Below are positions 9,559 to 29,148 of a stretch of DNA of 64,000 nt, in pieces. Location: contig NZ_JAFNJS010000001.1 in the NCBI RefSeq assembly GCF_019024325.1, forward strand, positions 1-64,000, written 5' to 3'. The DNA comes from Falsiroseomonas tokyonensis. Lineage in GTDB: Bacteria; Pseudomonadota; Alphaproteobacteria; Acetobacterales; Acetobacteraceae. Within the stretch, counting starts at the first letter, position 1; every line of letters starts with the position of its first letter. The notes under the pieces were generated by a model that ran no database searches, was not told the DNA's origin, and saw nothing but the letters and a program-made list of their open reading frames with translations. A program made the position numbers and the translations under genes.

Positions 9559-9936
9559 ATGCTCACTCTCGACCTCCCGGCCGAGCCGTATTGGCTCGAC
9601 CTGCCGCGCGGCGTCCGCGTGGAGATCCGACCCGTGACGACCGCCGTCATGGCCGCCGCGCAGGCCGCCGCCGCGCGCCGCCTCGCCGCGGTCCGCATCG
9701 CCGATCCGGACCTCGACCCCGACATGTCGCGCGGCCTCTCCTTCGCCTTCCTGGTGAAAGCTCTCGCCCGCCACGCCGTCACCGGCTGGGAGGGCGTCGG
9801 CGATGCCGCCGGCAATCCGCTGCCGCTGTCGCCCGAGGCGGTCGAGCGCCTGATGGACCTCGACGACATCGCCGCCACCTTCTGGGACCGCGCGACGGCC
9901 CCGATCGCCGCAGTGGCCGCCGAGGGAAACGGCTGA
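9559..9936 (+). CDS. Tail assembly chaperone, lambda G-like
   Basis: I chose ATG 9559 because CGGAG lies 6 bases before it; the frame is open to a GTG at 9511 but without a ribosome site. The product of 125 residues opens MLTLDLPAEPYWLDLPRGV and is otherwise helical, as tail chaperones that coat the tape measure are. It ends a few codons after the slippery sequence G GGA AAC at 9924-9930, in the correct frame for -1 slippage. A fraction of ribosomes would therefore make the longer GT protein. The tape measure gene follows, the normal order in lambda-like phages. Confidence 0.75.
   Translation: MLTLDLPAEPYWLDLPRGVRVEIRPVTTAVMAAAQAAAARRLAAVRIADPDLDPDMSRGLSFAFLVKALARHAVTGWEGVGDAAGNPLPLSPEAVERLMDLDDIAATFWDRATAPIAAVAAEGNG
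9924..9930 (+). promoter_or_regulatory. Programmed -1 ribosomal frameshift site GGGAAAC
   Basis: The heptamer reads G GGA AAC in the frame of the G-like gene, which is the canonical X XXY YYZ form. Slipping back by one base leads into an open frame that runs from here to 10250, immediately before the tape measure ATG. The zero-frame stop lies only 4 bases downstream (9934-9936). Tail chaperone pairs in many long-tailed phages use exactly this arrangement. Confidence 0.75.
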
Positions 9937-10250
9937 GGGCTCGCGCCGCCTGGCACTTCGGCCGCGGGCCCGAATACTGCCGCGGCTGCGCTGCCCTCGG
10001 CCGCGACTGCGCCGTGGCCTGCCCCTACGCCGCGCACGCGCCCACCAGCGTCCAGGGCCACGCCTGCTGGGCCGCCGGCACGGCCTGCGCCGAGGTCACC
10101 ATGGCCGGCCTGACGCTGGACACCGCCGGCGCGCTCGCCGCCGCGCGCGACCTCGGTGCCTCGGGATGGGCGGCCGCCGAACTGCTGCTCGCCATCCGCA
10201 TCGGCATGGCCGAGGGCAGTGCCGCCCGCCGCGAGGGGGAGACGACCTGA
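9930..10250 (+). CDS. Tail assembly chaperone GT extension (made by -1 frameshift)
   Basis: This is the T part of the GT fusion, read after slippage at 9924-9930; the full product would be about 230 residues. The region has no good start codon of its own, which also argues for frameshifting. It is unusually Cys-rich (YCRGCAALGRDCAVACPY, with further Cys nearby), then ends in a helix (GWAAAELLLAIRIGMAEG). The Cys spacing could bind a metal. GT proteins link the chaperone-coated tape measure to tail tube subunits. The stop is one base before the tape measure ATG. Confidence 0.7.
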   Translation, partial: RLRARAAWHFGRGPEYCRGCAALGRDCAVACPYAAHAPTSVQGHACWAAGTACAEVTMAGLTLDTAGALAAARDLGASGWAAAELLLAIRIGMAEGSAARREGETT

Positions 10251-10251
10251 C

Positions 10252-12420: not shown

Positions 12421-13103
12421 CCGAATACGCCTGGCCCGAGGCGCTGCGGCCCTCGCGGCTGACCTTCTACCTGCAGCACAACACCACGCGCTTCGTCTCG
12501 CCGGTCACCCGCGCCACGCAGGTGCTCCGCCGGGAGGGCGCGCGCTGGGTCGCGCAGGCGACCTTCGACCCGCTCGACCGCGTGCGTGCCGGCCTGCTCG
12601 AAGGGCTGCTCGCCGCGCTCGCCGGCTCGGTGAACACCGTCCGCATCTGGGACTGGCGGCGGGAGTTCCGCACCGGCGATCCGCGTAGCCAGGGCGACGT
12701 ACCGAGCGGGCCGTTCTCCTACTCCGACGCGACGATCTTCACCGACGGCACGGGCTTCGTGGTGGGCTCGGGCAACCCGGCGCTTGCCGCCGGCGCGCCA
12801 CGCGGGGCGCTGGCGATCCAGACCGGGGGCTGGTGGCCGAACGGGGTCGCGGTCGGCGCCGGCGACCTCATCGGCCTGGCGGGTCGGCTCTACATCGCCA
12901 CCGAGACCGTGACGGCGTCCGGCGCCGGCACAGCCACCATCCCGATTGCGCCACCGCTGCGCGACGCGCTGCTGATCAACCAGCCGCTGGTGCTGACCAG
13001 GCCCACCGTCGCCATGCGCCTGGTGTCCGACGACGAGGCCGCCAACCCGACCCGGCCGGGCCGCTTCACGGCGATCACCATCCGCCTCGAGGAGGCGCTG
13101 TAG
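12417..13103 (+). CDS. Phage minor tail (distal tail-like) protein
   Basis: The ATG at 12417 overlaps the tape measure stop and gives 228 residues; the upstream part of the open frame is shadow. It begins with WPEALRPSRLTFYLQHNT and contains VNTVRIWDWRREFRTG near residue 75, a region found in tail proteins that sit between the tube end and the tip. The rest is beta-rich. The following gene starts inside its stop codon (TAGTG), so the tail-tip genes are translationally coupled. The exact family is uncertain; position is the main evidence. Confidence 0.65.
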   Translation: MTEYAWPEALRPSRLTFYLQHNTTRFVSPVTRATQVLRREGARWVAQATFDPLDRVRAGLLEGLLAALAGSVNTVRIWDWRREFRTGDPRSQGDVPSGPFSYSDATIFTDGTGFVVGSGNPALAAGAPRGALAIQTGGWWPNGVAVGAGDLIGLAGRLYIATETVTASGAGTATIPIAPPLRDALLINQPLVLTRPTVAMRLVSDDEAANPTRPGRFTAITIRLEEAL

Positions 13104-13678
13104 TGTCCGACACGCACGGCACGCCGCGGCTGTCACCGCATGCGGCTTCCTCCGCCACCTCGCCGGTCGCCGCCCCCGTCGTGCTGGTCGAGCTCGACTT
13201 CGCCTCCGGGCCCTTCCGCGCCTGGACGGGCCTCGGCCAGCTCAATTGGGCGGGGAAGCTGTTCGAGGGCGTCGGCTCAATCGGCGCCGTCGGTGAGGTC
13301 GAGGAGACGGTGGAGCTACGCGCCGTGCGGCTGACGCTGGCACTGTCGCCCGTGCCGCAGGAGGTGGTGGACATCGCGCTCGCCGAGCGGAGCTTCCGGC
13401 TGCGGCCGGCGCGGCTCTGGGGCGCGCTGCTCGACGCCGAGGGCGCCTTCGTCGCCGACCCGTTCCCGCTCTGGGCGGGGCTGATGGACACGATGGAAGT
13501 GACCGACGGCGCCGAGCCGCGGGTCGCGCTCACCTGCGAGAGCCGGCTCGTCGACCTCGAGCGCGCCGAGGTGCGCCGCTACACCGACGCCGACCAGCAG
13601 GCCGAATACCCGGGCGACCGCTTCTTCGAATACGTCCCCGCCCTGCAGGAGGCGGAAATCCGGCTGCCCGCGCAGTGA
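13103..13678 (+). CDS. Phage tail-tip accessory protein (DUF2163-like region)
   Basis: The GTG at 13103 overlaps the previous TAG and gives 191 residues. After a short leader the protein is beta-rich: VVLVELDFASGPFRAWTG, then WAGKLFEGVGSIGAVGEVEE, LRLTLALS-type strands, and TCESRLVDLERAEVRRYTDADQ. The last motif, ending near YPGDRFFEYV, is typical of minor tail proteins next to the DUF2163 group in alphaproteobacterial prophages and gene transfer agents. The next gene starts with GTG inside its stop (GTGA). Confidence 0.65.
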   Translation: MSDTHGTPRLSPHAASSATSPVAAPVVLVELDFASGPFRAWTGLGQLNWAGKLFEGVGSIGAVGEVEETVELRAVRLTLALSPVPQEVVDIALAERSFRLRPARLWGALLDAEGAFVADPFPLWAGLMDTMEVTDGAEPRVALTCESRLVDLERAEVRRYTDADQQAEYPGDRFFEYVPALQEAEIRLPAQ

Positions 13679-14028
13679 CGCGGCGACCGGACTGGGCGGT
13701 GCGGCTGGCAGCCCTGCTGTCGGCGGTGGAGACGCGCGCCTTCGACGCCCATCGCTGGAACTGCGGGCGCTTCGCTCTGGCCGCGGTCGAGGCGGTGACG
13801 GGGGAGCGGCCTGCCTTCCACGTGCTCCCTCATCTTGCGGGCTCTGCCGACAGCGCCGGCTTCCCGCGCATCGCGCCCCTGCTGGCGCGCATGGGCGACA
13901 TCGTCCTCGCCCCGGATCCCGACCGCCTCGGCGTGGTGCTGGACGCTGGCCGAGTCGCCTTCGTCGGGCCGCGCGGCCTGCTGCGCGCGCCGATCACGCT
14001 CTGCACCATCGCCTGGAGGATCGGCTGA
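13675..14028 (+). CDS. DUF6950-type phage tail-tip protein
   Basis: This 117-residue protein starts with GTG 13675 overlapping the previous TGA. It shows HRWNCGRFALAAVEAVTGERP near residue 25 and GDIVLAPDPDRLGVVLDAG, then VGPRGLLRAPI near the end. These are the hallmarks of DUF6950, which stands where NlpC/P60 cell-wall peptidases occur in related phages. The conserved Cys in NCGRF is at the place of the peptidase Cys, but a clear catalytic His is not obvious. Enzyme activity is therefore unproven. Confidence 0.65.
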   Translation: MTRRPDWAVRLAALLSAVETRAFDAHRWNCGRFALAAVEAVTGERPAFHVLPHLAGSADSAGFPRIAPLLARMGDIVLAPDPDRLGVVLDAGRVAFVGPRGLLRAPITLCTIAWRIG

Positions 14029-14029
14029 C

Positions 14030-16030
14030 ATGCCCGCCGCCGTTCCGCTGATCGCCGTCGTCGCCGGCGGCGTCGCCTCGGCCGCGGTCGGCGGCGGCAT
14101 CATCGGCGCGATCGTCGGCGCCGGGGCGGCCTTCGTCGTCTCCACCATCGGCGCCTCGGTCTTCCCGGCCAAGCGGCCGACGGCGCCGACGTCCTCGGCT
14201 TCGCCGCGCCCCGGCGACGACCCGACCGCGCCCGGCGCCGGCCGCACGCAGTCCTTCCGCCAGCCGATCACCGAGCACCAGATCGTCTTCGGCCGCTGCA
14301 AGGTCGGCGGGCCGATCGTCTTCATCCACTCCGCCACCGACGATGCCGGCCGCGCCGACGGCTGGTTCTACGCCGTCGTCGTGCTCGCCGCGCACCGCGT
14401 CCGCGCCATCGGCGATCTCTGGCTCGGCGACACCCTGGCCACCGACGCGAAGTTCGCCGGCCTGGTGCGCATCGACCGCCACCTCGGCGCTCCCGACCAG
14501 GCCGCCAACACCAACCTGATCGCCGAAACGGGGGGCAAGTGGACCGCCGATCATCGCGGTCGCGGCCGCGCCTACGTCGCCGTCCGCCTCAAGATCACCG
14601 CCGAGGCCTTCCCCTCCGGCCCGCCGAACATCGCCGCCCTGGTCGAGGGGGCGGACACCATCCTCGATCCTCGGACGGGGGTGACCGGCTGGTCGGACAA
14701 CCCGGCCCTCTGCCTCGCCTGGTACCTGACCGCGCCCTTTGGCTGGAAAGCGTCCTGGGACGACATCGACATCCCGGCCCTCATCGCCGCGGCCAACACC
14801 TGCGACGAGCTGATCGGCACCCGCGCCGGGGTGACCGAGCGGCGCTACACCGTCAACGGCCGCGTGTCGCTCGGCGAGGGCAAGATCGCCATCACCCGCA
14901 AGCTGGTCGCCGCCATGGCTGGCGCGCTGGTCGTCTCGGGCGGGCGGTTCTTCATCCACGCCGGCGGGCCGGCGCTGCCGGCCGCGACGCTCACCTCGGA
15001 TGATCTCCGGGGCGACGTCACCATCCAGGGCAGCCGGCCGCGGCGGGATCTCTTCAACGGCGTGCGCGCCGTCTACGTCGACCCGGCGAAGAACTGGCAG
15101 CCGACCGATGCGCCGCCGCTGCTCGCCTCGAACTACGTGGCCGAAGATGGCGGCGAGCAGATCTACCGCGACCTCGAGTTCCCGCTGACCACCTCGGTGG
15201 CGACCGTGCAGCGCCTGATGAAGGCTGAGCTGGAGCGGATCCGCCGCCAGCGTGAGGTGGCCTTCCCGGCCAACCTCTCGGCGCTGCGGCTGCGGCCCTG
15301 GGACGGGGTGACGGTCGCCCTCGACCGTGTCGGGCCGTTCCCGGCGCGGGTGACGGGCTGGCGGCTGTCGCCGGATGGCGGCGTGGACCTCACCCTCTCC
15401 GAAGAGGACCCGGCAGTCTGGGACTGGAACCCGGCGGTGGACGAGCGCGCCGCCGGCGACAGCCCTTCGGTCGTGCTGCCGAACCCCGGGGTGATCGCTG
15501 CCCCCACCAGCATCGCCGTTGAGACGCCGCTCGGCGCCGCCTTCGCCGCTCTCGGCGTGTCCTGGTCCGCGGTCGGCAGCGCCTACCTGGCCGGCTACGA
15601 GCTCGAGTTCCGCCCCGCCTCCGTCGCCACCTGGCAGGGCTACGGCGGCGCGCTGGGCGCGACCGCGGCGTCTATCCCCACCACCGAGCCCACCGCCTTC
15701 CGGGCGCGCGCGGTGGCCCGCAGCGGGGCAGTGTCGGGCTGGCGGGAGGCGGCCATCCCCGGCGCCGTCACGGCGCCCGCCGCGCTCGGCATCACCGGCG
15801 GCGTGCGTCTCTCGGGCGGCTTCCCGGCCGATGCCGTCCGGCTGCAGGTGTTCGAGGCCAGCAGCGCCAGCCTCGCAGCCGCAGTGAAGCTCGCGACCGA
15901 GCCCACGGCGCTGCCCTGGGACCGCACCGGCCTCACCGCGGGCCAGGCCCGCTGGTACTGGCTCCGCGCCGTCTCCGCCGAGGGCAACGTCTCGGCCCTC
16001 GCCGGGCCTATCACCGCCACCGCTCTGTAG
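14030..16030 (+). CDS. Central tail-tip/host specificity protein (J-like)
   Basis: A 666-residue protein; ATG 14030 follows the previous stop by one base. Residues 1-45 form a Gly/Ala-rich hydrophobic segment (VAGGVASAAVGGGIIGAIVG) often seen at the start of these proteins. The body carries FRQPITEHQIVFGRCKVGG, GWKASWDDIDIPALIAAAN and LRPWDGVTVALDRVGP, all typical of the J/gp15-type tip protein. From about residue 500 there is a fibronectin type III-like domain (PTSIAVETPLGAAF, LAGYELEFRP, TAFRARAVARSGAVSGW). It forms the tail tip hub that contacts the host and carries the spike. Confidence 0.85.
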   Translation: MPAAVPLIAVVAGGVASAAVGGGIIGAIVGAGAAFVVSTIGASVFPAKRPTAPTSSASPRPGDDPTAPGAGRTQSFRQPITEHQIVFGRCKVGGPIVFIHSATDDAGRADGWFYAVVVLAAHRVRAIGDLWLGDTLATDAKFAGLVRIDRHLGAPDQAANTNLIAETGGKWTADHRGRGRAYVAVRLKITAEAFPSGPPNIAALVEGADTILDPRTGVTGWSDNPALCLAWYLTAPFGWKASWDDIDIPALIAAANTCDELIGTRAGVTERRYTVNGRVSLGEGKIAITRKLVAAMAGALVVSGGRFFIHAGGPALPAATLTSDDLRGDVTIQGSRPRRDLFNGVRAVYVDPAKNWQPTDAPPLLASNYVAEDGGEQIYRDLEFPLTTSVATVQRLMKAELERIRRQREVAFPANLSALRLRPWDGVTVALDRVGPFPARVTGWRLSPDGGVDLTLSEEDPAVWDWNPAVDERAAGDSPSVVLPNPGVIAAPTSIAVETPLGAAFAALGVSWSAVGSAYLAGYELEFRPASVATWQGYGGALGATAASIPTTEPTAFRARAVARSGAVSGWREAAIPGAVTAPAALGITGGVRLSGGFPADAVRLQVFEASSASLAAAVKLATEPTALPWDRTGLTAGQARWYWLRAVSAEGNVSALAGPITATAL

Positions 16031-16040
16031 GACCCGCGAC

Positions 16041-17873
16041 ATGGCCGCCCGCATCGACGACCTGATGGTCCTCGGCCAGAACATCTCCAAGACCGATCTC
16101 GCGAAGTACCTGCGCGACCGCGAGGCGGTGCTGCCGCGCGACTTCGGCGGCCTCGGCGATGGCGCAGCCAACGACCGCGCCGCCATCCAGGCCTGCTTCG
16201 ATCGCGCCGCGGCAGACGGCAAGTTCGCGATCATCCCGCCCGGCACCTGGATCGTCGACGCCGGCGTCACGCTCGGCGGCGGCGCCCGCGGCCTGATCAT
16301 GCAGGGGGTGATCCAGTACTCCGGCGCGGCCAACGCGCCGGCCACCGTGCTGACGCTGGGCGACGGCGGCACCACCCGCAACGGCGAGAAGCTTTACCTC
16401 AACCTGCAGGTCACGCGGCAGATCCAGTCCGACTGGGCGAGCGAGGCCGACATCGGCATCCTCGCGCGCAACCTCGACTCCTCGCTGCTCGACCTCCGCC
16501 TGGTCTCAGGCTTCACGATCGGGCTGCGCACGCTGGGCGACGGCCGCGGCTTCGAGGACACCACGCTGATCCTCGGCCGCATCCTGAACAACCGCTACGG
16601 GCTCGACGCACACTGCGCCACCGCCACCGCCTGGAACACCTCGATCCGCTACTACGGCGGCCACTTCGCCTGCGCGACCGGGATCAACCCGACCATCGAC
16701 CGCTTCGGGGTGCGCTTTTCGCGGCAGGCCGGGGCCTACAACAACCACAACCGGCACATCTTCGACGGGCCGAACTTCGAGCTCCGCCAGCTCGACCCGA
16801 ACCTCGCCATCCCCTTCCTGAACGAGACGAACGGCACCGCGATCATCGCGCGGGGGATGCGCATGGAGGCGTGCTCGCCGCTCGCGGCACGGCACACCGG
16901 GGCGGCGACCGACTGCGAGTACGAGGTGGCCTGGGCGCAGACCTACGCCATCGGCATCGACTACACCGCCACGGCCACCCGGTCGGGGAACGCCGTCTAC
17001 AACCGTCACCGTGCGCCAGCGTCGCGGCTGACCCGGCTGCTGGCGAACATCCCGAACCTGCGCGCCGCGGCCTTCCGCCAAAGCAACACCGAGATCGGCG
17101 TCGAGGGGGCCTGCATCATCGCGACCTCGACCACCACCGAGACCACCATGGCGGCGCTGTCCTGGAACGGGCTGGACGGCATCGCGGCGACCGGGCGGGG
17201 GCTGCTGCTGAACGCCAACCGCGGCGTCGCCTTCGTGGTGCAGACCACGCACGCGAAGGAATTCGCGCTGGCGCATTGGCTGGTCGGCGGCGCCGATGGC
17301 GGGCGGCTCTGCGTGCGACCCTTCGACGGCGCGGGCACTGTTCGGGAGAACCAGCCGCAGGACGTGCTGGCCTCCGGCACCACGATGCAGTGGGACACCG
17401 CCTCGAAGAGCTGGCAGGCCGGCGCGGTGATGCAGGACAGCTCGCTGAACCGGCGGCAGACGGTGCGGCTCGGGGCGGGCGTCGCCTTCGCGCAGATCGG
17501 CATCATCGGCTTCGACGGGCAGATCGAGCTCGAGGCGCTGCGGCTCTACGGCCTGCCGGAGGACGCGCCAGCGATCCTCTACGGCTGCCCCTCAGTGCCG
17601 GCCGGGACGCGGACGCTGGCACTGGAGACGAGCTGGGACCTGCCGAGCCTCGGCCCCGGCGCGACGGCCAACATCGACGTCACGGTGCCCGGCGCGCGCC
17701 GGGGCGACTTCGCGGACGCCTCGCTCGACACCAGCAGCATCGCCTTCGTGCTGGACTGCCACGTGTGGAGCAACAACAGCGTGCGCGTCACCGCGCGCAA
17801 CGTCAGCGCGTCGACGGTGGACCTCGCAGCGTCGCCGCTGGCGGTGCAGGTGGTGAAGCGGCGATTCGGTTGA
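16041..17873 (+). CDS. Tail spike protein, pectate lyase-like beta helix
   Basis: A 610-residue protein lying 10 bases after the tip protein. The N-terminal 35 residues (LMVLGQNISKTDLAKYL) look like a particle-binding segment. It continues with RDFGGLGDGAANDRAAIQA, the standard start of a pectate-lyase-type right-handed beta helix, and the next 350 residues have short alternating turns with Gly, Asn and Asp. Such spikes bind, and often cleave, surface polysaccharide. The C-terminal part (from about residue 470) is beta-rich and may trimerise. It is the last structural gene, and defence cargo follows. Confidence 0.8.
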   Translation: MAARIDDLMVLGQNISKTDLAKYLRDREAVLPRDFGGLGDGAANDRAAIQACFDRAAADGKFAIIPPGTWIVDAGVTLGGGARGLIMQGVIQYSGAANAPATVLTLGDGGTTRNGEKLYLNLQVTRQIQSDWASEADIGILARNLDSSLLDLRLVSGFTIGLRTLGDGRGFEDTTLILGRILNNRYGLDAHCATATAWNTSIRYYGGHFACATGINPTIDRFGVRFSRQAGAYNNHNRHIFDGPNFELRQLDPNLAIPFLNETNGTAIIARGMRMEACSPLAARHTGAATDCEYEVAWAQTYAIGIDYTATATRSGNAVYNRHRAPASRLTRLLANIPNLRAAAFRQSNTEIGVEGACIIATSTTTETTMAALSWNGLDGIAATGRGLLLNANRGVAFVVQTTHAKEFALAHWLVGGADGGRLCVRPFDGAGTVRENQPQDVLASGTTMQWDTASKSWQAGAVMQDSSLNRRQTVRLGAGVAFAQIGIIGFDGQIELEALRLYGLPEDAPAILYGCPSVPAGTRTLALETSWDLPSLGPGATANIDVTVPGARRGDFADASLDTSSIAFVLDCHVWSNNSVRVTARNVSASTVDLAASPLAVQVVKRRFG

Positions 17874-18052: not shown

Positions 18053-20347
18053 ATGGACGCGGTTGCGCCTCAGTCGGAACTGGAGAAGCGCGTGTCGCGC
18101 GACCAGCGGAACGCCGAGGCGGCGGTGGGCGCGGCGCAGTACGAGCTCGCGCGCTTCCGCGGCGGCCCTGAGCCCGTCGGCGGCCTGCACGGGCTGACCG
18201 ATCACGACAGGAGCCGGATGGACTACGCCTCGCAGCGACGGGCCACCCTGGAGGCGATCTCCTCAGAGCCTTTCCAGGCCATGGTCGAGGTGTACGCGGA
18301 AGTCGTCGGGGAGAACGGCAAGATCCAGGGGAAAGAGCAACTCTGGTACGCCAACGCGGCCGCATCGACGAACGAGGTCCTGAAGGGGACGGACGGCACG
18401 ATCAACGTGCTCGCCTGGACCCACCCCGGCGTCCAGATCGCCCTTGCGACGGACATCGGCGACTACAAGGACGTAAAGGCGAACGGCTACCGCCTGCGCA
18501 GCGTGGAGCCTCTCGCGAAGGCCCGCTTCGACGCCACGTCGCCGCAGCTCTCCGCGGTCTACCAGCCCGGCGGCGCCGTGCGGCCTGCGAGGGCTGTCAC
18601 TCCTGCGAAGACCGGCCTCAAGGCCGTGAAGCTGAGCATGACGAAGGACCAGGTGCACGCCTTCATCTCGCGCATGTCGGGCCTGATGATCGTCACCGGC
18701 GCACCAGGATCCGGGAAGACCACGGTCGCCTTCCAGCGCATACGCTTCCTTTACGACCAGCAGGACCAGCGCGACGGCGGCGGTCGTCTGGTGCCGTATA
18801 CGCCCGAGCTGACCCGCGTGTTTCTCGCCAACGAGAACCTTGCCGAGCAGGCGAAGGCCCTCCTCGCCAATCAGCTCGCCATCCCCACGTCCGTGGTCGA
18901 GTCTGTCGGTGACTTTGTGGACGGCTACCTGGAACAGGTCTGGATCTACAAGCACAACGCTCGGCCCCGGCAGAAGAAGCTCTCGCAGCTCGATGCTGCG
19001 GCACGGGCCGCCATCCTCGGTCTATCGGACCATCACGACCTGGGCCGTCTCTGGCAGGTCTATGAGCGTCAGATCGCAGATAGGCTTGGCGCGGCAGCAG
19101 CGGCTGACTGGGTTGCCGCCGATAAGGACAGCGCCGCGCAGCTGAAGGCCTTGGCCGCGGCGCTGGCACGCGTCGCCGGTTCGGCGACCGCCGGGATCGA
19201 TCCGTTGAAATCCCCGCTGACCATGGGCGCGGTCTACTCCGAGGTGTCGAGGGCCTACGGCGCGGCCCGCGAGAAACTGTCGGCGCGCGCCAGGAGCAAG
19301 TTCGACGAGCAGTTCCAACATTGGCTCTTCTCTGTCTACGACCCGCTGTCCGCCCTTGCCGCGTACTTCGGGGGGCGTGAGTCCGAGGCTGCGCTTCGGG
19401 TGCGCCGCGGCACCGGCGCGCGGGTGAAGGAGGCCGAGATCCTTGCCCAGGCTGTCGGGGAGTGGGCCGAGAGAGTTTACGGACCGGAGGACCGTCCTTG
19501 GCTCGCGTGGCTCCTGCGCTTTGCTCTACCGGAGCCGACGGACCCACAGGCCCGGTTTCGTGAGATGCCCTCCTCCATTGCGCCCGCGACGAGTGCCGGC
19601 GAGCGCTGGACCCACATCGCGATGGACGAGGCCCAGGACCTCTGCGTGGCGGAGGCTTCGCTGCTCGGTTCACTGGTCGACCCCGATGGCGCGCTCACGG
19701 TATCGGCTGACTTCCAGCAGATCGTAAGTCCCGTGCACGGCATGGCGACTCCGCACGCGCTGGGCGTGGGCAGATCGCTGCGGGGCAGCGGCGTGGAGCA
19801 GTTCTATCCGTTCGCCCGCAACATGCGGCAGAGCAAGCAGATCGGCCGGTTCTTGCGGGGCTTCTACGAGGCTGCCTTTAGGGAGCGTCCCACCTTCGAC
19901 GTCAACGCGGATATGGAGGACAAGAAGCCGCAGCTCATCATCGCTCAACCGCAGGACCACGCGCTGAGAATTAAGCAGATTGCGTCAGTGCTACGGCGCT
20001 CCGACGTCGTGAGCAGCGTGGCTCTCCTGCAGATCAACGAAGACGAGCAGTCGCTCAACAGGCTGCGGGCAGAGTTGGAGAAGTCGGGCGTGCTCCTGGC
20101 ACCGGCGTGGTCTGCCATTGGCGCAGGCCTTCTCACCACCTCCGTCGAGCGCATCAAGGGCCTCGAGTTCGATGCCTGCATCGTGCTCGGGCTGGAGGAC
20201 GTGGAGACGGCGGCGCTGAATTTCACCCTCAACCGCGCCTACGTGGCCCTGTCACGCCCAGCACGGCGCCTCGCACTGATCTGCAGCGAGTACCCTCCGC
20301 TCTTGCGCAAGGTCGACAAGTCTCTTTTCGACGTCACCCAGTCTTGA
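18053..20347 (+). CDS. SF1 helicase, UvrD/HelD-like, first gene of the candidate defence operon
   Basis: A 764-residue superfamily 1 helicase. Walker A is GAPGSGKTT at about residues 216-224 (LMIVTGAPGSGKTT). The DEAQD box (motif II) is near residue 525, in HIAMDEAQDLCVAEASLL. Motifs V and VI are in TTSVERIKGLEFDACIVLG and RAYVALSRPARRLAL near 700-740. The first 190 residues are not a UvrD domain. They contain DGTINVLAWTHPGVQIALAT, which reminds me of the N-terminal module of HelD, the factor that frees stalled RNA polymerase; this comparison is tentative. No nuclease motif is evident. It heads an operon with the unknown 296-residue gene 19 bases behind. AAGGGA supports the chosen ATG. Confidence 0.8.
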   Translation: MDAVAPQSELEKRVSRDQRNAEAAVGAAQYELARFRGGPEPVGGLHGLTDHDRSRMDYASQRRATLEAISSEPFQAMVEVYAEVVGENGKIQGKEQLWYANAAASTNEVLKGTDGTINVLAWTHPGVQIALATDIGDYKDVKANGYRLRSVEPLAKARFDATSPQLSAVYQPGGAVRPARAVTPAKTGLKAVKLSMTKDQVHAFISRMSGLMIVTGAPGSGKTTVAFQRIRFLYDQQDQRDGGGRLVPYTPELTRVFLANENLAEQAKALLANQLAIPTSVVESVGDFVDGYLEQVWIYKHNARPRQKKLSQLDAAARAAILGLSDHHDLGRLWQVYERQIADRLGAAAAADWVAADKDSAAQLKALAAALARVAGSATAGIDPLKSPLTMGAVYSEVSRAYGAAREKLSARARSKFDEQFQHWLFSVYDPLSALAAYFGGRESEAALRVRRGTGARVKEAEILAQAVGEWAERVYGPEDRPWLAWLLRFALPEPTDPQARFREMPSSIAPATSAGERWTHIAMDEAQDLCVAEASLLGSLVDPDGALTVSADFQQIVSPVHGMATPHALGVGRSLRGSGVEQFYPFARNMRQSKQIGRFLRGFYEAAFRERPTFDVNADMEDKKPQLIIAQPQDHALRIKQIASVLRRSDVVSSVALLQINEDEQSLNRLRAELEKSGVLLAPAWSAIGAGLLTTSVERIKGLEFDACIVLGLEDVETAALNFTLNRAYVALSRPARRLALICSEYPPLLRKVDKSLFDVTQS

Positions 20348-20366
20348 CCTCCGGAACCTCTCCAGC

Positions 20367-21257
20367 ATGTCCCACACCCAGAGCCCACCCTTGTTCCCGC
20401 AGCTGGAGCGCTTCGTCGAGCGCACAGGCCTGCTGGCCAACGCGAAGGGCATCCTCTCGGCGCGCCTGCCGCGTATCCTCGGCCAAGGACAAACCCGGGC
20501 TGAAGGGTTGGACATGCCGCCGGCAACCATCGAGCGGCAGCAGGAGCTCCTTGCGCTCTCTCTACCCGACGAGGCATCCCGCGATCCTGGGGTCCAGAGT
20601 GAGATCGCCGACGCGCGCCGCGCCGTGGACGCGCACACCGACCACATGCGGCACCCGGAGAACCGGCGGCGCTTTGCCATGCAGGTTCTTCACCGCCTGG
20701 AAGGCGTCTCGACTGGCAGTAAGGATAACCACTTCTTCGCCGGCCGGCTCGTCCTCGTGCCCGACAAGGGCGGCCAGAACTGGGCGTGGTCGATGACGCC
20801 GCACTACCCGGTCATCGCGAAAATTCCGGCCGACATTGACTACGTTGTCAGCGCCTACGCCGCTTCCGAACGCATCGTCGAGAAGTGGACCATGCCAGTG
20901 GACCGGTTCCTCGGCCGGCTGTCGCTCGCTTGGACGATGGCCCACCATTTCGGTGAGGGCGACAACGTGTTCATCGCGGACGTCGCGCGGTTCTTCAAGG
21001 TCGCGGCGCAGGATGAGCGCTTCTGGGGAAGCCCATCCCGCCGCAACTTCGAGGACGTCCCGGAAGCGGTGTTCATCGCGAACCTTATCAACTGGCGTCG
21101 CCACCGCGACGCATCCGGACAGCGAGAGAGCTTCGAACTCGTGCCGGCAACGCTCAATCAGGCCCACGGGCCCAAGTCGCGCGCCTTCTTCGTGCCGAGC
21201 AATCCGGAAGGCACGGTCGTGCGCCCCATGATCTACATCCGCAAGCAGTCGAGCTGA
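20367..21257 (+). CDS. Unrecognised protein of the candidate defence operon, 296 residues
   Basis: I do not recognise this family. The first 90 residues are helical and charged (LERFVERTGLLANAKGILS, ERQQELLALSL). From about residue 120 a mixed alpha/beta part follows with FFAGRLVLVPDKGGQNWAWS, then IDYVVSAYAASERIVEKW and SLAWTMAHHFGEGDNVFI. A polar, strand-rich end (RAFFVPSNPEGTVVRPMIYI) closes it. There is no signal peptide, membrane helix or obvious catalytic motif. It lies between the SF1 helicase and the first ATPase, with only 14 bases to the next start. It could be a specificity or adaptor subunit holding the place that TerB proteins or methylases take in related loci; that is inference. 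Confidence 0.7.
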   Translation: MSHTQSPPLFPQLERFVERTGLLANAKGILSARLPRILGQGQTRAEGLDMPPATIERQQELLALSLPDEASRDPGVQSEIADARRAVDAHTDHMRHPENRRRFAMQVLHRLEGVSTGSKDNHFFAGRLVLVPDKGGQNWAWSMTPHYPVIAKIPADIDYVVSAYAASERIVEKWTMPVDRFLGRLSLAWTMAHHFGEGDNVFIADVARFFKVAAQDERFWGSPSRRNFEDVPEAVFIANLINWRRHRDASGQRESFELVPATLNQAHGPKSRAFFVPSNPEGTVVRPMIYIRKQSS

Positions 21258-21271
21258 GAGGAAGGTCGAAC

Positions 21272-22555
21272 GTGGAAATGCTCCTCGACGCGAGTGACGC
21301 GCGACGCCTGGTGCGCAACCTCCTGAACGCACCAATCGCTCCCGGTAAGTACTCGCACTTCATCAATGTCGGCACAGATCACATCTTGGACGCTCTCGAC
21401 CAGAACTACTTCCGCGGCGAGCTGGCGGACGGGATCGGCTGCTTCAAGTACCTGGAGGGCGACTACGGTAGCGGCAAGACGCAGTTCATCAACAGCCTCG
21501 CGCAGCGCGCCAGCGAGCAGAACGTGGTGACTGCGCTTGTGACAGTAGGGAACGAGTGCCCTTTCAACTCGCCAGCGGCGATCTTCGCGGCGATCATGGA
21601 GTGCTTCAGCCCTCCGGCAGAAGCCCAGCGCGATGACAAGGGAATCGAGATTCTCATCGACTGCTGGATCGGGCGACGCATCCGACAGCTCGGCGCCGAG
21701 CCAGGTAACGACGTGCCCGAGATCGTTCAGCGCCAGATCGAGCAGCAGATCGGTGGCCTCTGGAAGGGCGCGCCCGACCCTCAGATGGCCTCCGCACTCA
21801 CGGCGCTCAGCCTGCGGTTTCTGAAGACGAATTGCGGAGCGAAAGAGGCTGTTGCCGACAGTGAGCTGATCTCCTGGATCCGCGGGGGCAATGTCCGTTC
21901 GGCCGCGCTCAAGAACCTGGGGCTATTCGAGCCGGTGCGGGACGACAATGCGTTCCGCCGCCTCAAGACCGTGATTGCGTTCCTACGGAGCAGAATGGGC
22001 TACCGCGGCTTCCTCATCGCCTTCGACGAGGGCACGCGCACGTCCTCCTTCCGCCGTGGCTCTGCCAAGCAGAAGCAGGCGATCGAGAACCTTCTCACCA
22101 TGATCAATCAGAATGCGGAGGGCGAGTTCGGCGGCGTGATGTTCTTGTACGCCGCTACGCCCGACTTCCGCTCCGAGGTGATCAGCACGTACCGCGCCCT
22201 CCAGGACCGCATCGGCAATAAGGCGTTCTCGAAAGGCAGCCCGCAGGTGCCGCTGATCAATATCGAGGAGGCGAACTCTGAGGACGTGATCTACAGCATC
22301 GGCGAGCGCCTGCTCTCGGTGTTCAGCAAGGCCTACGGCGTCACCTGGGATAAGGCGGTCCAAGCGACCAACATGAAGGCGATCGTCGCTGCGCAGAAGG
22401 CCATCCTCTTCGAGACGCCGAAGCCCCGCTTCTTCGTCTACCAGTACTGCCGCTTCCTCGAAGGGCAGCGCGAGACGCAACACTCCATCAGCGCGGAGCA
22501 GGCGAGCGACTTCGTCAACAACAACGAGCCGCCTCTGGAGGGTGATGGCACGTGA
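21272..22555 (+). CDS. BrxD-like P-loop ATPase 1
   Basis: The start is GTG 21272 with GGAAGG 6 bases upstream; an ATG two codons later is possible. The 427-residue protein has the N-terminal arrangement of DUF2791/BrxD ATPases: DARRLVRNLLNAPIAPGKY, then VGTDHILDALDQNYF and Walker A GDYGSGKT at residues 64-71. Walker B is FLIAFDEGT at about 247-255. The region EGEFGGVMFLYAATPDF may hold sensor 1. In BREX type 2/6 and Shango-type systems such ATPases work with an Lhr-like helicase. Here there are two different ones in a row, the second starting inside this gene's stop (GTGA). Confidence 0.8.
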   Translation: MEMLLDASDARRLVRNLLNAPIAPGKYSHFINVGTDHILDALDQNYFRGELADGIGCFKYLEGDYGSGKTQFINSLAQRASEQNVVTALVTVGNECPFNSPAAIFAAIMECFSPPAEAQRDDKGIEILIDCWIGRRIRQLGAEPGNDVPEIVQRQIEQQIGGLWKGAPDPQMASALTALSLRFLKTNCGAKEAVADSELISWIRGGNVRSAALKNLGLFEPVRDDNAFRRLKTVIAFLRSRMGYRGFLIAFDEGTRTSSFRRGSAKQKQAIENLLTMINQNAEGEFGGVMFLYAATPDFRSEVISTYRALQDRIGNKAFSKGSPQVPLINIEEANSEDVIYSIGERLLSVFSKAYGVTWDKAVQATNMKAIVAAQKAILFETPKPRFFVYQYCRFLEGQRETQHSISAEQASDFVNNNEPPLEGDGT

Positions 22556-24021
22556 TCTCCGCCGGCGCTCAGGTCGAACACGCGGAGTTCGGCATCGGGA
22601 AGGTGCTAGCTGTTCTCGGCGAGACCGCCACTGTCGACTTCTTTGGCGAGACTCTGGACGTGAACGTCGCCGAACTCGTCATCAAGGCTAACGGCAGTGC
22701 TGCCGCGGCAGTGCCGGCGACAAATGGGCCAACGACAGATCTCGCTTTCCGGCGCTCCTTCGAGGCGGTCAATCTCGGCGTCGTTCCTGCCGATCCGGAG
22801 CAGCTGGTGAAGCTCACCATCGGTGGCGATGAAGTCTCCGACGGCATTCGTGCTCTGCTGAGGGATGCCCCAAAGAAGGGGGCATCCCGCGTCTTTATGG
22901 GCTATTATGGCTCCGGCAAATCGCACCACCTCCGCTTGGTGAAGGCAATCGCTCTGCGTGAGGGATGGGTCACAGCGTCGCTAGAACTCGACCCAAAGGC
23001 CGCTGACCCAGCGAAGCCATCCTCGGTCTTCCAGGAGCTTATCACCGGGCTTGAATTCCCCATGCGGGCCGACGGTACGCGGAGCGAGGACTTCTTTGAC
23101 CTCATCAAGGAGATGCGTGACAACTGGACCACGGTTCGGTCGCTTCGGTACTTCCGCGGTTCCCCATGGTTCAGCAAGGGCCTCGACGCGCTCCAGTATC
23201 TCTCCCACCGCCGCGACGATCATGAGTACGTCTCTGCGGTCAGCTGGCTTGCTGGCCAGGTGAAGCAGATCAGCGCCATCCGCTCCGCGACCTGGCGGGC
23301 CGGCCATCGGGACACGATACCGGCCATGCCGCAATCCAAGGACACTGGACTGCTCTACGCCTACCAACTCGTGGTCCTTCACGAGGTGCTGCAGGCCCTT
23401 GGATACCGCGGCCTTGCCATCATCATCGACGAGGCCGAGCACGTCCGTACCTACTCGGCGAACAGATATATCAGGGCCAACAATTTCTTCGACATCCTAG
23501 CGCGGTGTGCTCACCGGCCGCGGCAGGACCTTCGCGACCCTCAGTCCGACTACCCCCACCTGCTTGCCGACGCGCCGCCTTTCTGGCGGGAGGGTCCGCA
23601 CTTCAGCCTCTTCGTCGGCTTGACGGAGGGCGAGGACACGCAGGACCTGCGCCGGAAGGCCGGCGAGATGAGCGTGCTGATCCACTCGCCCGAAGATGTG
23701 GTCCAGCTCGAGCCGCCAAGCGCTGAGGATTACGAGGCTTGGTCGGAGGCGTTCCTCGCTGAGGCGGCGGGGCGCCTGGGCCCCAAGGTAGGGGTGCTCT
23801 CCGATCCTGGCCTGCGCGGCCGCATCGCCGGCGCTCTGAGGGAGCACTTCGAGCAGACGCCGCAGTCGGAAAAGCTCCTGCGCAACTGGACAAAGATGGC
23901 GGGCTTTCCGGCCGCCGTGCTGATGAGTCAGCCGAGGCTCGTAGGCGGTGAAGAACTTCTAGCCATCGTTCAGGACGCCGCGCGCCAGGTCGCGGGCGAG
24001 GGCCTGCCCTGGGATGACTAG
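22552..24021 (+). CDS. BrxD/DUF2791-like P-loop ATPase 2 with N-terminal Tudor-like domain
   Basis: The GTG at 22552 overlaps the previous TGA; a GGAGG-like site precedes it. The first 45 residues (GAQVEHAEFGIGKVLAVLG, then TVDFFGE) match the short Tudor-like domain at the C-terminal end of PcrA/UvrD helicases and in other RNA polymerase-binding proteins. A linker follows, then a DUF2791-type ATPase: FRRSFEAVNLGVVPADPE, Walker A GYYGSGKS at 117-124, and Walker B LAIIIDEAEH at about 288-297. The C-terminal winged-helix-like part includes DVVQLEPPSAEDYEAW. The protein has 489 residues. It probably forms a mixed ring or a sequential complex with ATPase 1 and works with the helicase whose ATG overlaps its stop. 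Confidence 0.8.
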   Translation: MISAGAQVEHAEFGIGKVLAVLGETATVDFFGETLDVNVAELVIKANGSAAAAVPATNGPTTDLAFRRSFEAVNLGVVPADPEQLVKLTIGGDEVSDGIRALLRDAPKKGASRVFMGYYGSGKSHHLRLVKAIALREGWVTASLELDPKAADPAKPSSVFQELITGLEFPMRADGTRSEDFFDLIKEMRDNWTTVRSLRYFRGSPWFSKGLDALQYLSHRRDDHEYVSAVSWLAGQVKQISAIRSATWRAGHRDTIPAMPQSKDTGLLYAYQLVVLHEVLQALGYRGLAIIIDEAEHVRTYSANRYIRANNFFDILARCAHRPRQDLRDPQSDYPHLLADAPPFWREGPHFSLFVGLTEGEDTQDLRRKAGEMSVLIHSPEDVVQLEPPSAEDYEAWSEAFLAEAAGRLGPKVGVLSDPGLRGRIAGALREHFEQTPQSEKLLRNWTKMAGFPAAVLMSQPRLVGGEELLAIVQDAARQVAGEGLPWDD

Positions 24022-26059
24022 TAGCCGCTCCGACCTGGCCCGGATGATGCCGGACGCGTTCCCGGTATTCTTCACCGGGCGTCAGCCTTACGCAGGTCAG
24101 GCCATGGTGATGCCCGAGGTGGTGAGGGGCCACAATGTGCTGTTCGCGGCGCCGACCGCCTCGGGCAAGACCGAGGCTGCCGTGACGCCACTCTATCAGC
24201 GCCATATCACCTTCAAGCGCCGCGATCTCTCTACAATCTACGTTGCCCCCACGAAGGCTCTCGTCAACGACCTTTACGAACGTCTCGTCACCTATCTCGA
24301 GACGAGGCAGGCTGGCGCGGTCGCACGGTACACGGGCGACCGGCACGAGTTCCGAACAGCCTCAGGTGCGTTTTGCCTTCTAGTAACGCCGGAGGCACTC
24401 GACTCCCTCCAACTCCGCCGTCCAGAGACGTTGTCTGGGGTCCGCGCCGTCATTGTGGACGAGATCCATCTGCTCCACGGGCAGCCGCGCGGGCAGCAAC
24501 TCCGGCATGTCATCGCGCGGATTCGGAAAGCGGCCGCACCTTCCGGGTCACCTAGAGATAGGTTCCAGCTCGTTGGTATGACAGCGACGCTCGACGACAT
24601 GGCTGGCGTCGCGGAGACCTGGCTCGGTGCCGGGGCAAAGGTGCTGTCTCACGGTGCATCGCGGGACATCGAGCTGCAGTTCGTCGACATCGATGCGGAC
24701 GGAGACCCCGACAGGGAACGTGCAGGCGCCCTCGCGCGCTGGCTGCAGCGGGCTGCCGCCGAGAAGGTGCTTGTCTTCGCGAACTCCCGGAACGGGGCCC
24801 ATGGCTTGGCGGCCCACCTCCATCGGGAACTGGAGGGTACCCGCTGGCCCGTCCACCTCCACTTCGGTGCCTTAGCGGCAACAGAGCGCGAGCGCGTCGA
24901 GGACGAGATGCGCAGGAAGCGCTACGGCGTGTGTGTTGCGACTACCACGCTGGAGATCGGCATCGACATCGGCGACGTTGACACGGTCGTCCTGAGCGAT
25001 CCGCCCCGGAGCGTCAGCGGATTTCTGCAGCGTATAGGGCGCGGCAATCGCCGCAGCGATGTCTGCCGTGTTGTAGCTTTCCGGGCGACGGAAAACGACG
25101 AGCGCTTGATACGGGCCCTTGTGGACTGCGGCCGCCGCGGTGAACTCGACGATATCCACGAGTACGACCGTCCCTCGGTGCGCTTCCAGCAGATCCTGAG
25201 CCTCTGTTGGAGGGCGACGCGCCAGGACCGACCGCTGTCCGCAGCCGCGCTCTGCGCCGAAGCCGGTGCAGATGATCATAAGGCCGTCATCAACGACATG
25301 GTCGAAACCGGCTGCCTCGCCGATGTTCGTGGGGCCCTCATCCCGTGCGATCGGCTCATGGACGAGGCCGACGCCGGTCAGATCCACACGGTCATTGCCA
25401 GCCGGGTCGGAAGCGCCGTGGTCGATATTCGGACCGGCAAGACGGCCATTCGCGATGCCGACGAGTCCACGGCAGGGGGCGCCATCTTCCACGGCGGTTC
25501 GATGCGACGTTTGTTGGCGGGCTCTGAAGGCGGAGCGTACCTCGGCGGCGCAGCGGCACGTTCGCAGTCGCTTGCTAGGATCAAGGGCACCGGACCGGCG
25601 CTGCCGGTCAGCCGGAGCGTTATCTGGGGGCTGGCTCGCCAGCGCGGTTTCGATCCGGTGCGGTGGCACTTGAGCGGAGCAGAGCTCGTGACATGGGGTG
25701 GGGAGACGTACAACACGCTCCTCGGGGCCCTATTCGCCCGGCAGCTTCCCGACCGGCGCTTTGCGGTTACGCCTGACAGCGTGGCCGGCCCGGTCCATCT
25801 GCTCGATGTTTCGCTCGACTTCATACGCGAGCTGGCTCGGTCTGCGGAGGAGGCAGGCGACTTGCCGCTGAGCACGGCGACGAAATTCACAAGTCCGAGC
25901 CGATACCTCAACGAGCTATCGCCGCGGCTCGCCGCTCTGGAGAAGCGAAGCTCGATTCCTTGGAAGCCATTCTGGCGTTGGCTGGACCGCATCGAGGCAA
26001 TCGACCAGATCGGCTCCATGCCTCCAACCGGAGCGCCCCCGGGAGCGGACGCACGGTAG
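24014..26059 (+). CDS. Lhr-type SF2 DNA helicase (BrxHI/SngC-like)
   Basis: A 681-residue superfamily 2 helicase; ATG 24014 overlaps the stop region of ATPase 2 by 8 bases. Motif I is APTASGKTE at about 47-55, motif Ia APTKALVNDL, motif II DEIH at 149-152 (VDEIHLLHGQPRG), motif III GMTATLDDM, and motif VI QRIGRGNR at 339-346. The phrase FGALAATERERVEDEMRR before TTTLEIGIDIGDVD is typical of Lhr. The C-terminal 300 residues lack recognisable nuclease signatures and probably form winged-helix and DNA-gripping domains. The same pairing of an Lhr-like helicase with BrxD ATPases is known from BREX and Shango systems. It is the last gene of the operon. Confidence 0.85.
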   Translation: MTSSRSDLARMMPDAFPVFFTGRQPYAGQAMVMPEVVRGHNVLFAAPTASGKTEAAVTPLYQRHITFKRRDLSTIYVAPTKALVNDLYERLVTYLETRQAGAVARYTGDRHEFRTASGAFCLLVTPEALDSLQLRRPETLSGVRAVIVDEIHLLHGQPRGQQLRHVIARIRKAAAPSGSPRDRFQLVGMTATLDDMAGVAETWLGAGAKVLSHGASRDIELQFVDIDADGDPDRERAGALARWLQRAAAEKVLVFANSRNGAHGLAAHLHRELEGTRWPVHLHFGALAATERERVEDEMRRKRYGVCVATTTLEIGIDIGDVDTVVLSDPPRSVSGFLQRIGRGNRRSDVCRVVAFRATENDERLIRALVDCGRRGELDDIHEYDRPSVRFQQILSLCWRATRQDRPLSAAALCAEAGADDHKAVINDMVETGCLADVRGALIPCDRLMDEADAGQIHTVIASRVGSAVVDIRTGKTAIRDADESTAGGAIFHGGSMRRLLAGSEGGAYLGGAAARSQSLARIKGTGPALPVSRSVIWGLARQRGFDPVRWHLSGAELVTWGGETYNTLLGALFARQLPDRRFAVTPDSVAGPVHLLDVSLDFIRELARSAEEAGDLPLSTATKFTSPSRYLNELSPRLAALEKRSSIPWKPFWRWLDRIEAIDQIGSMPPTGAPPGADAR

Positions 26060-26475
26060 GAGAAGTGCAGCGAACACCTGCGAGAGACGTGTTGGCCTGG
26101 GTTTCAAATCCTACACCATCTTCCGGGTGCGCCGTGGCCAGATCTGCTGCGCGCGCCCGTTGGTCCACACCGGCGCAGCCGCCGGCGGCCGATCGCCTGG
26201 CGCCCTTTGCGGCCTGCCGGTGGAGTCGCGGTGTCGCCGGCGCTCGATCAGCACCCCGGCTTCCCGGCGTGAATGGAACATCTCGCGGTCCAGCAGCGTG
26301 TCACGCCGATTGCCGTTGAAGCTTTCGTCCTAGCCGTTCTTCCACGCCCGCACATGCCGCGCACCCGCCCGAAGGTGCGCAGGACCTGAAAGATTCCCTC
26401 CGGTCGCGGCGCTGCGACGACGGAGGGAGGGCGGCGCCCTCCCTGCCATCAGCAGCGCCGATCTTCAGCGCCCTT
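26060..26475. other. Junction between accessory DNA and chromosome
   Basis: No intact gene is present. The stretch contains the IS3-type remnant at about 26100-26370 and a GC-rich tail behind ppdK. If the prophage or island has a right attachment site, it should be here or in the spacer at 17874-18052. I could find no direct copy of another window sequence to prove it. Confidence 0.5.
26100..26370 (-). pseudogene. Degraded IS3-family transposase OrfB, C-terminal remnant
   Basis: On the minus strand one frame reads WKNG-stop-DESFNGNRRDTLL, then EMFHSRREAGVLIE and a worn RPPAAAP end. This is the C-terminal signature of IS3-type OrfB (ENGYxESFNGKxRDEL, later PPAPE), including the catalytic Glu of ESFN, but a stop codon replaces the usual Tyr and later residues are eroded. 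No N-terminal core or matching inverted repeats are visible. It belongs to a different IS3 subgroup from the element at 4534-5787. The remnant sits exactly between the defence operon and chromosomal ppdK. Confidence 0.65.

Positions 26476-29148
<2,673 letters not shown>

What the first reader, a model, noticed from the sequence alone, without database searches (positions are those of the whole stretch)
18053..26059. Candidate undescribed defence operon: SF1 helicase, unknown protein, two BrxD-like ATPases, Lhr helicase
Seen: five same-strand genes with gaps of 19 and 14 bases, then a 4-base and an 8-base overlap, placed between a prophage tail spike and the chromosome. Known: DUF2791/BrxD ATPases with Lhr-like helicases form the core of BREX type 2/6 and, with a TerB protein, of Shango. 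Here no methylase, PglZ, BrxL, kinase or TerB gene is present; instead there is a HelD/UvrD-like SF1 helicase, an unrecognised 296-residue protein and a second ATPase. Inference: a distinct system that processes or remodels invading DNA.
Basis: partly seen in the sequence, partly recalled or inferred. Interest (0 to 1): 0.85.

Follow-up and report, generated by a model that had tools for sequence, protein, structure and literature searches.

The report
Prophage-borne helicase and twin-ATPase operon
A compact set of five genes, carried by prophages and other regions of scattered alphaproteobacteria, joins two helicases to a pair of ATPases and a protein of unknown kind; it fits no named anti-phage system tested here and may be a new relative of them, but no function has been shown.

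Summary
In detail: five same-strand genes at 18053-26059, gaps 19 and 14, overlaps 4 and 8 bases. They are a real, transferable unit. Nine distinct alphaproteobacterial loci hold the genes in the same order (63-85% protein identity; two copies visibly damaged, one cut by its contig end), and all five genes are under purifying selection. Three copies, the window's included, sit behind prophage tail or lysis genes; three others lie near a retron-type reverse transcriptase, a SIR2 protein, or an abortive-infection gene. PADLOC matches the ATPases and Lhr helicase to BrxD/SngB and BrxHI/SngC and does not know gene 2. It is neither BREX (no PglZ in the genome) nor Shango (no TerB, two ATPases). Plasmids of a cyanobacterium and a desulfobacterium carry a related block (small unknown protein, ATPase, ATPase, Lhr); the helicase tree joins g5 to these, apart from BrxHI and SngC. 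New here: g1 is nearest to HelD, the motor that strips RNA polymerase from nucleic acid, and g4 has an added N-terminal domain whose best, sub-threshold, match is the PcrA/UvrD RNA-polymerase-binding Tudor domain. Most likely a defence module in which paired ATPases load Lhr, perhaps linked to transcription. Function is inferred; nothing here shows phage resistance.

The parts
18053..20347 (+). g1: SF1 helicase, 764 aa, HelD-like; GSGKT and DEAQ motifs kept in all 8 orthologs aligned
   Evidence: NCBIfam HelD_BACSU 1.5e-9 best; only HelD chains in PDB at E<=0.01; lysine-to-DEAQ spacing 302-305 in 8 orthologs, against 307 and about 323 in the two HelD chains (counted by me), 181-198 in six of eight other SF1 helicases measured and 366-370 in two
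20367..21257 (+). g2: 296-aa protein of unknown family, well conserved (72-80% identity to the window in 8 orthologs)
   Evidence: fold not resolved (mean pLDDT 57)
21272..22555 (+). g3: first BrxD-like AAA+ ATPase, 427 aa, Walker A and B invariant in 9 orthologs
   Evidence: Pfam BrxC_BrxD 7.7e-43; PADLOC SngB 2.5e-27, BrxD 8.5e-24; alignment
22552..24021 (+). g4: second BrxD-like AAA+ ATPase, 489 aa, Walker A and B invariant in 9 orthologs
   Evidence: Pfam BrxC_BrxD 4.2e-17; alignment
22552..22686 (+). N-terminal Tudor-like domain of g4 (about residues 1-45)
   Evidence: 8 of the 9 orthologs scanned: PcrA_UvrD_tudor is best Pfam match in 7, E 0.0019-0.024, below cut-off; CarD_TRCF_RID in 4 (0.0034-0.072); HupF_HypC in 4 (0.040-0.093), the only match of the eighth; absent from the two plasmid homologs
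24014..26059 (+). g5: Lhr/BrxHI-like SF2 helicase, 681 aa
   Evidence: PADLOC BrxHI 1.8e-68, SngC 1.1e-55; DEAD 9.7e-30, Helicase_C 5.2e-18; alignment
25421..25441 (+). conserved VDIRTGK stretch of g5, resembling the helicase interaction motif of PcrA partners (weak lead)
   Evidence: [VL]D..TG[KDE] in 7 of 7 g5 orthologs and in 0 of 5 helicases from systems without the Tudor-like domain; motif from passages of PMC8318588
1..17873 (+). part of a prophage (tail genes) whose last cargo before the chromosome is the operon
   Evidence: not matched in the stretches of genus relatives compared

Best explanation
A mobile, prophage-carried module of the BrxD-BrxHI kind with a new composition. Shown: five genes persist together; two AAA+ ATPases with intact nucleotide-binding motifs, an Lhr-type SF2 helicase, a HelD-like SF1 motor and a conserved protein of unknown family. 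Inferred: g3 and g4 form an ORC/Cdc6-like assembly that loads or triggers the g5 helicase on incoming DNA, as PMC12839542 suggests for BrxD and BrxHI; the Tudor-like domain of g4 ties that assembly to RNA polymerase or to g5, and the HelD-like g1 strips RNA polymerase from the target, so that transcription of invading DNA stops; g2 is adaptor or effector. The likeliest role is defence of a lysogen against competing phages or plasmids.
For: Co-occurrence: 9 distinct loci have g1-g4 in order, 8 also g5 in place (one cut by the contig end), the ninth a g5 fragment. g1 profile hits 2 of 372 class genomes, the two that hold g2. Purifying selection; one clade recurs in the g1-g4 trees. Families. Mobile or defence-like neighbours at 6 of 9 loci: window, L004, L011 behind phage tail or endolysin genes, L008 a retron-type RT, L007 a SIR2 protein, L006 an Abi_C gene and a VapE-like primase. 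Operon G+C below its flanks in 6 of 7 loci measured (window 0.651 against 0.739 and 0.711). No PHROGs family for g2, g3 or g4. HelD. Tudor.
Against: No nuclease or other effector domain was recognised. No phage-resistance data. No null for neighbours; only chosen flanking ORFs were scanned; L005, L010 and L012 showed ordinary neighbours in the ORFs scanned. Tudor matches are below cut-off, the orthologs are not independent, and HupF_HypC competes in four. The HelD model also finds other SF1 helicases in 104 of 142 class genomes, E down to 2.2e-14, none above cut-off; in the window's own genome it listed the UvrD-like gene (3.6e-8) and not g1 at E<=1e-5, and in G091 the g1 ortholog at 2.4e-6. 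Folds of g1 and g2 failed. Copies in prophages could serve the phage.
Confidence: 0.58

Rival explanations
1. A prophage helper module: the five genes serve the phage's own life cycle, for example clearing RNA polymerase and R-loops from its replicating DNA, rather than defence.
For: Three copies lie behind tail or endolysin genes; helicases plus a HelD-like motor and a Tudor-like domain would suit conflict resolution.
Against: L006, L007 and L008 have defence-type neighbours and no phage late genes among the ORFs scanned; tblastn finds g2 and g4 in none of 50,697 phage records; no PHROGs family for g2, g3 or g4; the related four-gene blocks are on plasmids.
Confidence: 0.17
2. A variant of Shango or of the BrxD-BrxHI arm of type 2/6 BREX, with TerB, PglZ and methylase replaced, working the same way.
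For: g3 and g4 match SngB/BrxD and g5 matches BrxHI/SngC; the Aulosira block stands right after PglZ-BrxD-BrxHI-like genes.
Against: No TerB gene and two ATPases; no PglZ in the genome; the helicase tree separates g5 and the plasmid-block helicases from BrxHI and SngC, 100/99.
Confidence: 0.15
3. A chromosomal DNA-repair or transcription-recycling operon without a role in conflict between phage and host.
For: Lhr, HelD and PcrA/UvrD Tudor domains belong to housekeeping repair or transcription factors (established knowledge; PMC8318588, PMC8655204); three loci have ordinary neighbours in the ORFs scanned.
Against: g2 absent from the 14 other genus members searched; patchy presence, lower G+C, prophage position.
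Confidence: 0.08

Closest known systems
Shango (SngABC)
   Same: A BrxD-like ATPase followed by an Lhr-like helicase, here on plasmids (TerB annotated; the name Shango for these is mine, from their TerB-ATPase-helicase make-up)
   Different: Shango has a TerB-N protein and one ATPase; here no TerB, two ATPases, a HelD-like helicase and an unknown protein; helicases fall on different sides of a 100/99 branch
BrxD-BrxHI dyad of BREX types 2 and 6
   Same: ATPase and Lhr-type helicase side by side; BrxHI is the best PADLOC match of g5
   Different: No PglZ, BrxC or methylase in the operon; no PglZ in the genome
Unnamed four-gene block on Aulosira laxa plasmid AP018310 and Desulfomonile tiedjei plasmid NC_018026
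   Same: Small unknown protein, two BrxD-like ATPases, Lhr helicase in this order; helicases group with g5, 100/99
   Different: No g1 among the annotated neighbours and no Tudor-like stretch on the second ATPase; homology of the small protein to g2 not shown: 1 of 273 decoys scored at least as high as the Aulosira protein and 12 of 273 as the Desulfomonile one
HelD, RNA polymerase recycling motor
   Same: Best NCBIfam match and only PDB match of g1; similar length and motif spacing
   Different: 36.4 bits against a cut-off of 419; HelD is described for Gram-positives, Bacteroides and Deltaproteobacteria and was not verified elsewhere in Proteobacteria in PMC8655204 (passages read)

Membership tests
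BREX (any type) | PglZ present | tested here: not met
   PF08665 in 0 of 1 own genome (59 contigs, 99.7% complete); control rings in 2 of 14 genomes
BREX (any type) | BrxC and a methylase or its replacement in the operon | tested here: not met
   five genes, none matches a methylase; the whole genome was not searched for these
BREX type 2/6 dyad | BrxD and BrxHI homologs adjacent | tested here: met
   g4 next to g5, but g3 and g4 score 88.1 and 41.7 bits against the NCBIfam BrxD cut-off of 350
Shango | TerB N-terminal domain protein (SngA) | tested here: not met
   none of the five matches TerB or SngA; direct neighbours are a phage spike-like gene and PPDK
Shango | single SngB ATPase | tested here: not met
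   two ATPases in 9 of 9 loci
Shango | helicase orthologous to SngC | tested here: not met
   branch 100/99 separates 4 g5 rows and 2 plasmid-block helicases from 6 SngC-type and 2 BrxHI rows; inner branch to g5 is long (2.6) and four rows have unusual letter make-up
HelD | score above NCBIfam HelD/HelR cut-off | tested here: not met
   36.4 bits against 419
HelD | N-terminal antiparallel helical arm and an insertion in domain 1A | tested here: inconclusive
   spacing 303 fits an insertion; helices 9-34 and 50-71 only in a model with mean pLDDT 40
PcrA/UvrD or CarD/Mfd Tudor domain (in g4) | match above Pfam cut-off | tested here: inconclusive
   best family in 7 of 8 orthologs scanned but 14.9-18.5 bits against 23.9
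Gabija | GajA nuclease with GajB helicase | tested here: not met
   GajB matches of g1 cover short motif stretches (best 4.1e-7); no GajA match in the operon
Any anti-phage system | protects against phage | not testable with these tools
   needs infection assays

The most novel reading that the evidence does not exclude
A transcription-directed immune machine: the Tudor-like domain of g4 docks the paired-ATPase/Lhr assembly on RNA polymerase that is transcribing invading DNA, and the HelD-like g1 evicts the polymerase, so that the system finds foreign DNA through its transcription and silences it. The N-terminal stretch of g4 and g1 occur together in the nine loci, and neither was seen in the two plasmid relatives.
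Probability: 0.25. Interest if true: 0.85.

Novelty: new variant of a known kind. Interest (0 to 1): 0.6.

Why it matters
It suggests that the BrxD-BrxHI pair, known from BREX and resembled by Shango, is a module built into at least one further arrangement, with two ATPases, and it names a candidate link between a defence-like operon and RNA polymerase (HelD-like motor plus Tudor-like domain) that can be tested with purified proteins. Gene 2 is a well conserved protein with no family in the libraries searched.

Tried and rejected
Structures of g2 (mean pLDDT 57) and g1: shallow alignments, too poor for a fold search, so none was run. Homology of g2 to the small protein of the plasmid blocks: hhalign E 0.0058 with probability 6%; not supported by controls (1 of 273 decoys and 1 of 200 shuffles at or above the Aulosira protein, 12 of 273 decoys at or above the Desulfomonile one), so I call it only a positional counterpart. 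Pairing of g3 and g4 with the first and second plasmid ATPase: neither shown nor rejected (AU p 0.20 and 0.28); g3 with SngB is not rejected either (0.18). Reading g1 as a proven HelD: rejected after the control, where the own genome's listed match was its UvrD-like gene, not g1. A PcrA-interaction motif in g5: weak, since the glutamate of the motif is K or D in 6 of 7. Further relatives: the small plasmid protein was found in none of 299 proteobacterial genomes (which warns that an empty answer without a positive genome shows nothing) and not in IMG/VR; the second plasmid ATPase not in IMG/VR. The g4 profile gave short matches (85-112 positions, 28-47 bits) in 6 of 284 phylum genomes besides the own one; their surroundings were not examined. 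Genome searches scored only a few first-look candidates per genome (2, 5-6), so absences are soft. A third g2 hit, G067 (33% over 52 residues, two stops), was dropped as spurious. A repeat between the window's right end and contig C34 was sought, nothing convincing found (best 15 bases, E 0.017); the left prophage end was not located. Promoter-like sites: 0 found, 0.9 expected; terminator-like 4 found, 4.0 expected. Rows left out: L012 from the g1 alignment (g1 there lies in two frames), L005 and L010 from the g5 alignment (fragment; contig end), L011 from the Tudor scan; G004 of the 13 genus relatives was not fetched. Literature: nine PMC searches showed no paper on this operon in their listings; preprints and most subscription papers are not held, and DUF2791 returned none.

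Full report
Observation. The five ORFs exist as described, with gaps 19 and 14 and overlaps 4 and 8. To the left lie phage tail genes: tail tube, tape measure, a Phage-tail_3 protein with PHROGs tail matches and a pectate-lyase-like spike at sub-cutoff score. To the right is a pyruvate phosphate dikinase gene. Of 13 genus relatives that match this gene, 12 were fetched. In them, matches of 150 bases or more to the window's first 28 kb start only at 26424-26476; about 18 kb to the left was available in 11, none in L046. g2 was absent from the 14 other genus members searched whole. G+C of the operon is 0.651, against 0.739 for 9500-17873 and 0.711 for 26476-64000.

What the proteins are. g1 is an SF1 helicase whose four best NCBIfam families are HelD/HelR (1.5e-9 to 4.1e-6; PcrA 0.07). 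Its profile finds only HelD chains in the PDB at E<=0.01 (6yxu 2.1e-6, 6wvk 6.9e-6). The distance from the Walker A lysine to DEAQ is 302-305 in 8 orthologs. It is 307 and about 323 in the two HelD chains (counted by me from the alignments), 181-198 in six other SF1 helicases and 366-370 in two more. Against this: in a whole-genome search the HelD model found SF1 helicases in 104 of 142 class genomes, none above cut-off; in the window's genome it listed the UvrD-like gene (compare) and not g1 at E<=1e-5. So g1 is HelD-like, not a demonstrated HelD. g2 has no match in PADLOC, NCBIfam or PHROGs, a sub-cutoff Pfam match at 0.025 and no PDB match below E 0.8. g3 and g4 are BrxC/BrxD-type AAA+ ATPases (7.7e-43 and 4.2e-17) with Walker motifs invariant in 9 orthologs. 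g5 is an Lhr/BrxHI-like SF2 helicase (1.8e-68). PHROGs knows only general helicase families for g1 and g5 and none for g2-g4.

An added domain. The first 60 or so residues of g4 have no counterpart in the homologous ATPases of the Aulosira and Desulfomonile plasmids. Scanned alone in 8 of 9 orthologs, 7 have PcrA_UvrD_tudor as best Pfam family (E 0.0019-0.024), 4 also match CarD_TRCF_RID (0.0034-0.072) and 4 match HupF_HypC (0.040-0.093), all below cut-off; the eighth, L012, matches HupF_HypC alone. The PcrA and Mfd domains bind RNA polymerase (PMC8318588, abstract and passages seen). HelD frees RNA polymerase from nucleic acids (abstract openings in the listing; passages of PMC8655204). So two parts of this operon point, weakly, to RNA polymerase. 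The N-terminal stretch (9 rows of A3) and g1 (9 of 9) occur together, and neither was seen in the two plasmid blocks.

Distribution. A pattern scan of a collection of 84,980 species genomes with a g2 alignment, which reaches close relatives only, gave 7 loci: Bradyrhizobium, Pseudorhodobacter, a Mesorhizobium, Albimonas, a Methylobacteriaceae MAG, Amaricoccus and a Rhodospirillales MAG. With G091 and the window that makes nine distinct loci; L004, L009 and L013 come from contigs of one length (38001) and are taken as one, as are L008 and G741 (214527). tblastn finds g1-g4 in order in 9 of 9 and g5 in 8 of 9 (L010 cut by the contig end), with a g5 fragment in L005; in L012 g1 is split between two frames (the window itself is). 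Identities to the window run from 63 to 85%. All nine were found through g2, so the reverse matters: a g1 profile hit 2 of 372 class genomes, G000 and G091, the two that hold g2 (2 of 385 after dropping one spurious match). One search scored at most two candidates per genome. Nothing was found for g2 in 72,556 plasmid and 50,697 phage records, nor for g4 in the phages. The closest pair of loci has dN/dS 0.06-0.12 in all five genes. The clade L008,(L005,(L004,L011)) recurs in the g1-g4 trees; the place of the window's copy differs between trees, and L008's g5 is much closer to L004 than its other genes are, so some exchange within the operon is likely.

Neighbours. L004 (Albimonas, also held as a viral contig in IMG/VR) has a tail protein, a PHROG of unknown function and an endolysin-like peptidase before the operon; L011 (Amaricoccus) has the same peptidase family. 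L008 has a reverse transcriptase whose best PADLOC match is a retron type and a UvrD-like helicase; L007 has a SIR2 protein and a fragment resembling MkoA. L006 has an Abi_C gene about 3.5 kb downstream and a VapE-like primase upstream. That is 6 of 9 loci with mobile or defence-like neighbours. L005 (10 ORFs scanned), L010 and L012 showed none that I would call so; L010 has an SNF2-type helicase. I scanned chosen ORFs only and computed no chance expectation.

Wider family. Searching g4 in plasmids led to TerB-ATPase-helicase loci and to Aulosira laxa AP018310, where a block reads small unknown protein, ATPase, ATPase, Lhr helicase, directly after genes that look like PglZ-BrxD-BrxHI. Searching its proteins led to the same block on Desulfomonile tiedjei NC_018026, with no BREX core genes annotated beside it. 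Profile comparison joins their ATPases and helicase to g3 (E 1.5e-15), g4 (2.8e-10) and g5 (2.6e-54), but g3 and g4 also match the opposite ATPase. The helicase tree (14 rows, 4 of them g5) puts g5 with the two block helicases, apart from BrxHI and SngC (100/99). The ATPase tree is unresolved. Homology of their small protein to g2 is not supported by controls. Of 23 plasmid records matched by g3 I looked at the surroundings of six: three have an annotated TerB gene (Natrinema, Methylorubrum, Polymorphobacter), one is BREX-6 (Pseudanabaena), one has an unannotated gene of the same size as Natrinema's TerB gene (DL31), one a DUF805 protein (Rhizorhabdus, which I labelled SngB/SngC in the trees). 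Of the five hits of the g1 and g4 searches two are TerB loci, one the Aulosira block, one a Photobacterium plasmid hit of g1, and one record carries no annotation.

Mechanism. Best supported: paired ATPases load or trigger Lhr, as PMC12839542 suggests for BrxD and BrxHI (outline and passages seen). The RNA polymerase step by g1 and the g4 domain is inferred, and the part of g2 is unknown. The prophage setting fits defence of the lysogen, but a phage-helper role is not excluded.

Verdict. A real, transferable operon, not described in the listings of the nine literature searches; neither BREX nor Shango by tested features; a new arrangement around a known ATPase-helicase pair. Its defence function is probable by association and untested.

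Noticed in passing
window 4230-9243: A second low-G+C cargo (0.650) in the same prophage, between tail tube and tape measure: ABC-three-component genes (CTD7, MC3, DUF3732 ATPase), with transposase genes of IS3 type (rve and HTH_21 domains; type name recalled) at 4574-5769 just before them, possibly interrupting the first gene.
   Followed up: partly
L018/L022 (Aulosira laxa plasmid AP018310), 12393-24287: Genes that look like PglZ-BrxD-BrxHI followed directly by the four-gene paired-ATPase block: two ATPase-Lhr modules in one locus.
   Followed up: partly
L086, L088 and L085, L089, downstream of the Shango-like genes: Two of the five bacterial Shango-like loci seen (L086, L088; not L016, L017, L090) are followed by PD-(D/E)XK nuclease plus UvrD helicase genes; both archaeal ones (L085, L089) by metallophosphoesterase plus SMC genes, in L089 also NurA. 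DNA-end processing pairs may be recurrent partners.
   Followed up: no
G000:C34:604373-605206 and window 26424: In 10 of the 11 genus relatives with flank a glycosyltransferase-like gene stands left of PPDK; in this genome it is on another contig beside an FtsK-like gene (names are my reading of the translations), so the prophage end coincides with a rearrangement.
   Followed up: partly
L005 (G091) 6995-7561: The g5 gene is reduced to a fragment whose reading frame runs into sequence with a DNA ligase C-terminal match (1.3e-5, below cut-off), while g1-g4 stay open.
   Followed up: no
L019 (Photobacterium plasmid NZ_CP099737) 3471-11237: The only plasmid hit of g1 (28% over its C-terminal third) is an AAA ATPase gene in a row with a DEAD helicase and a DUF1998 gene, near a cytosine methylase: possibly DISARM-like (recalled), not examined.
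   Followed up: no
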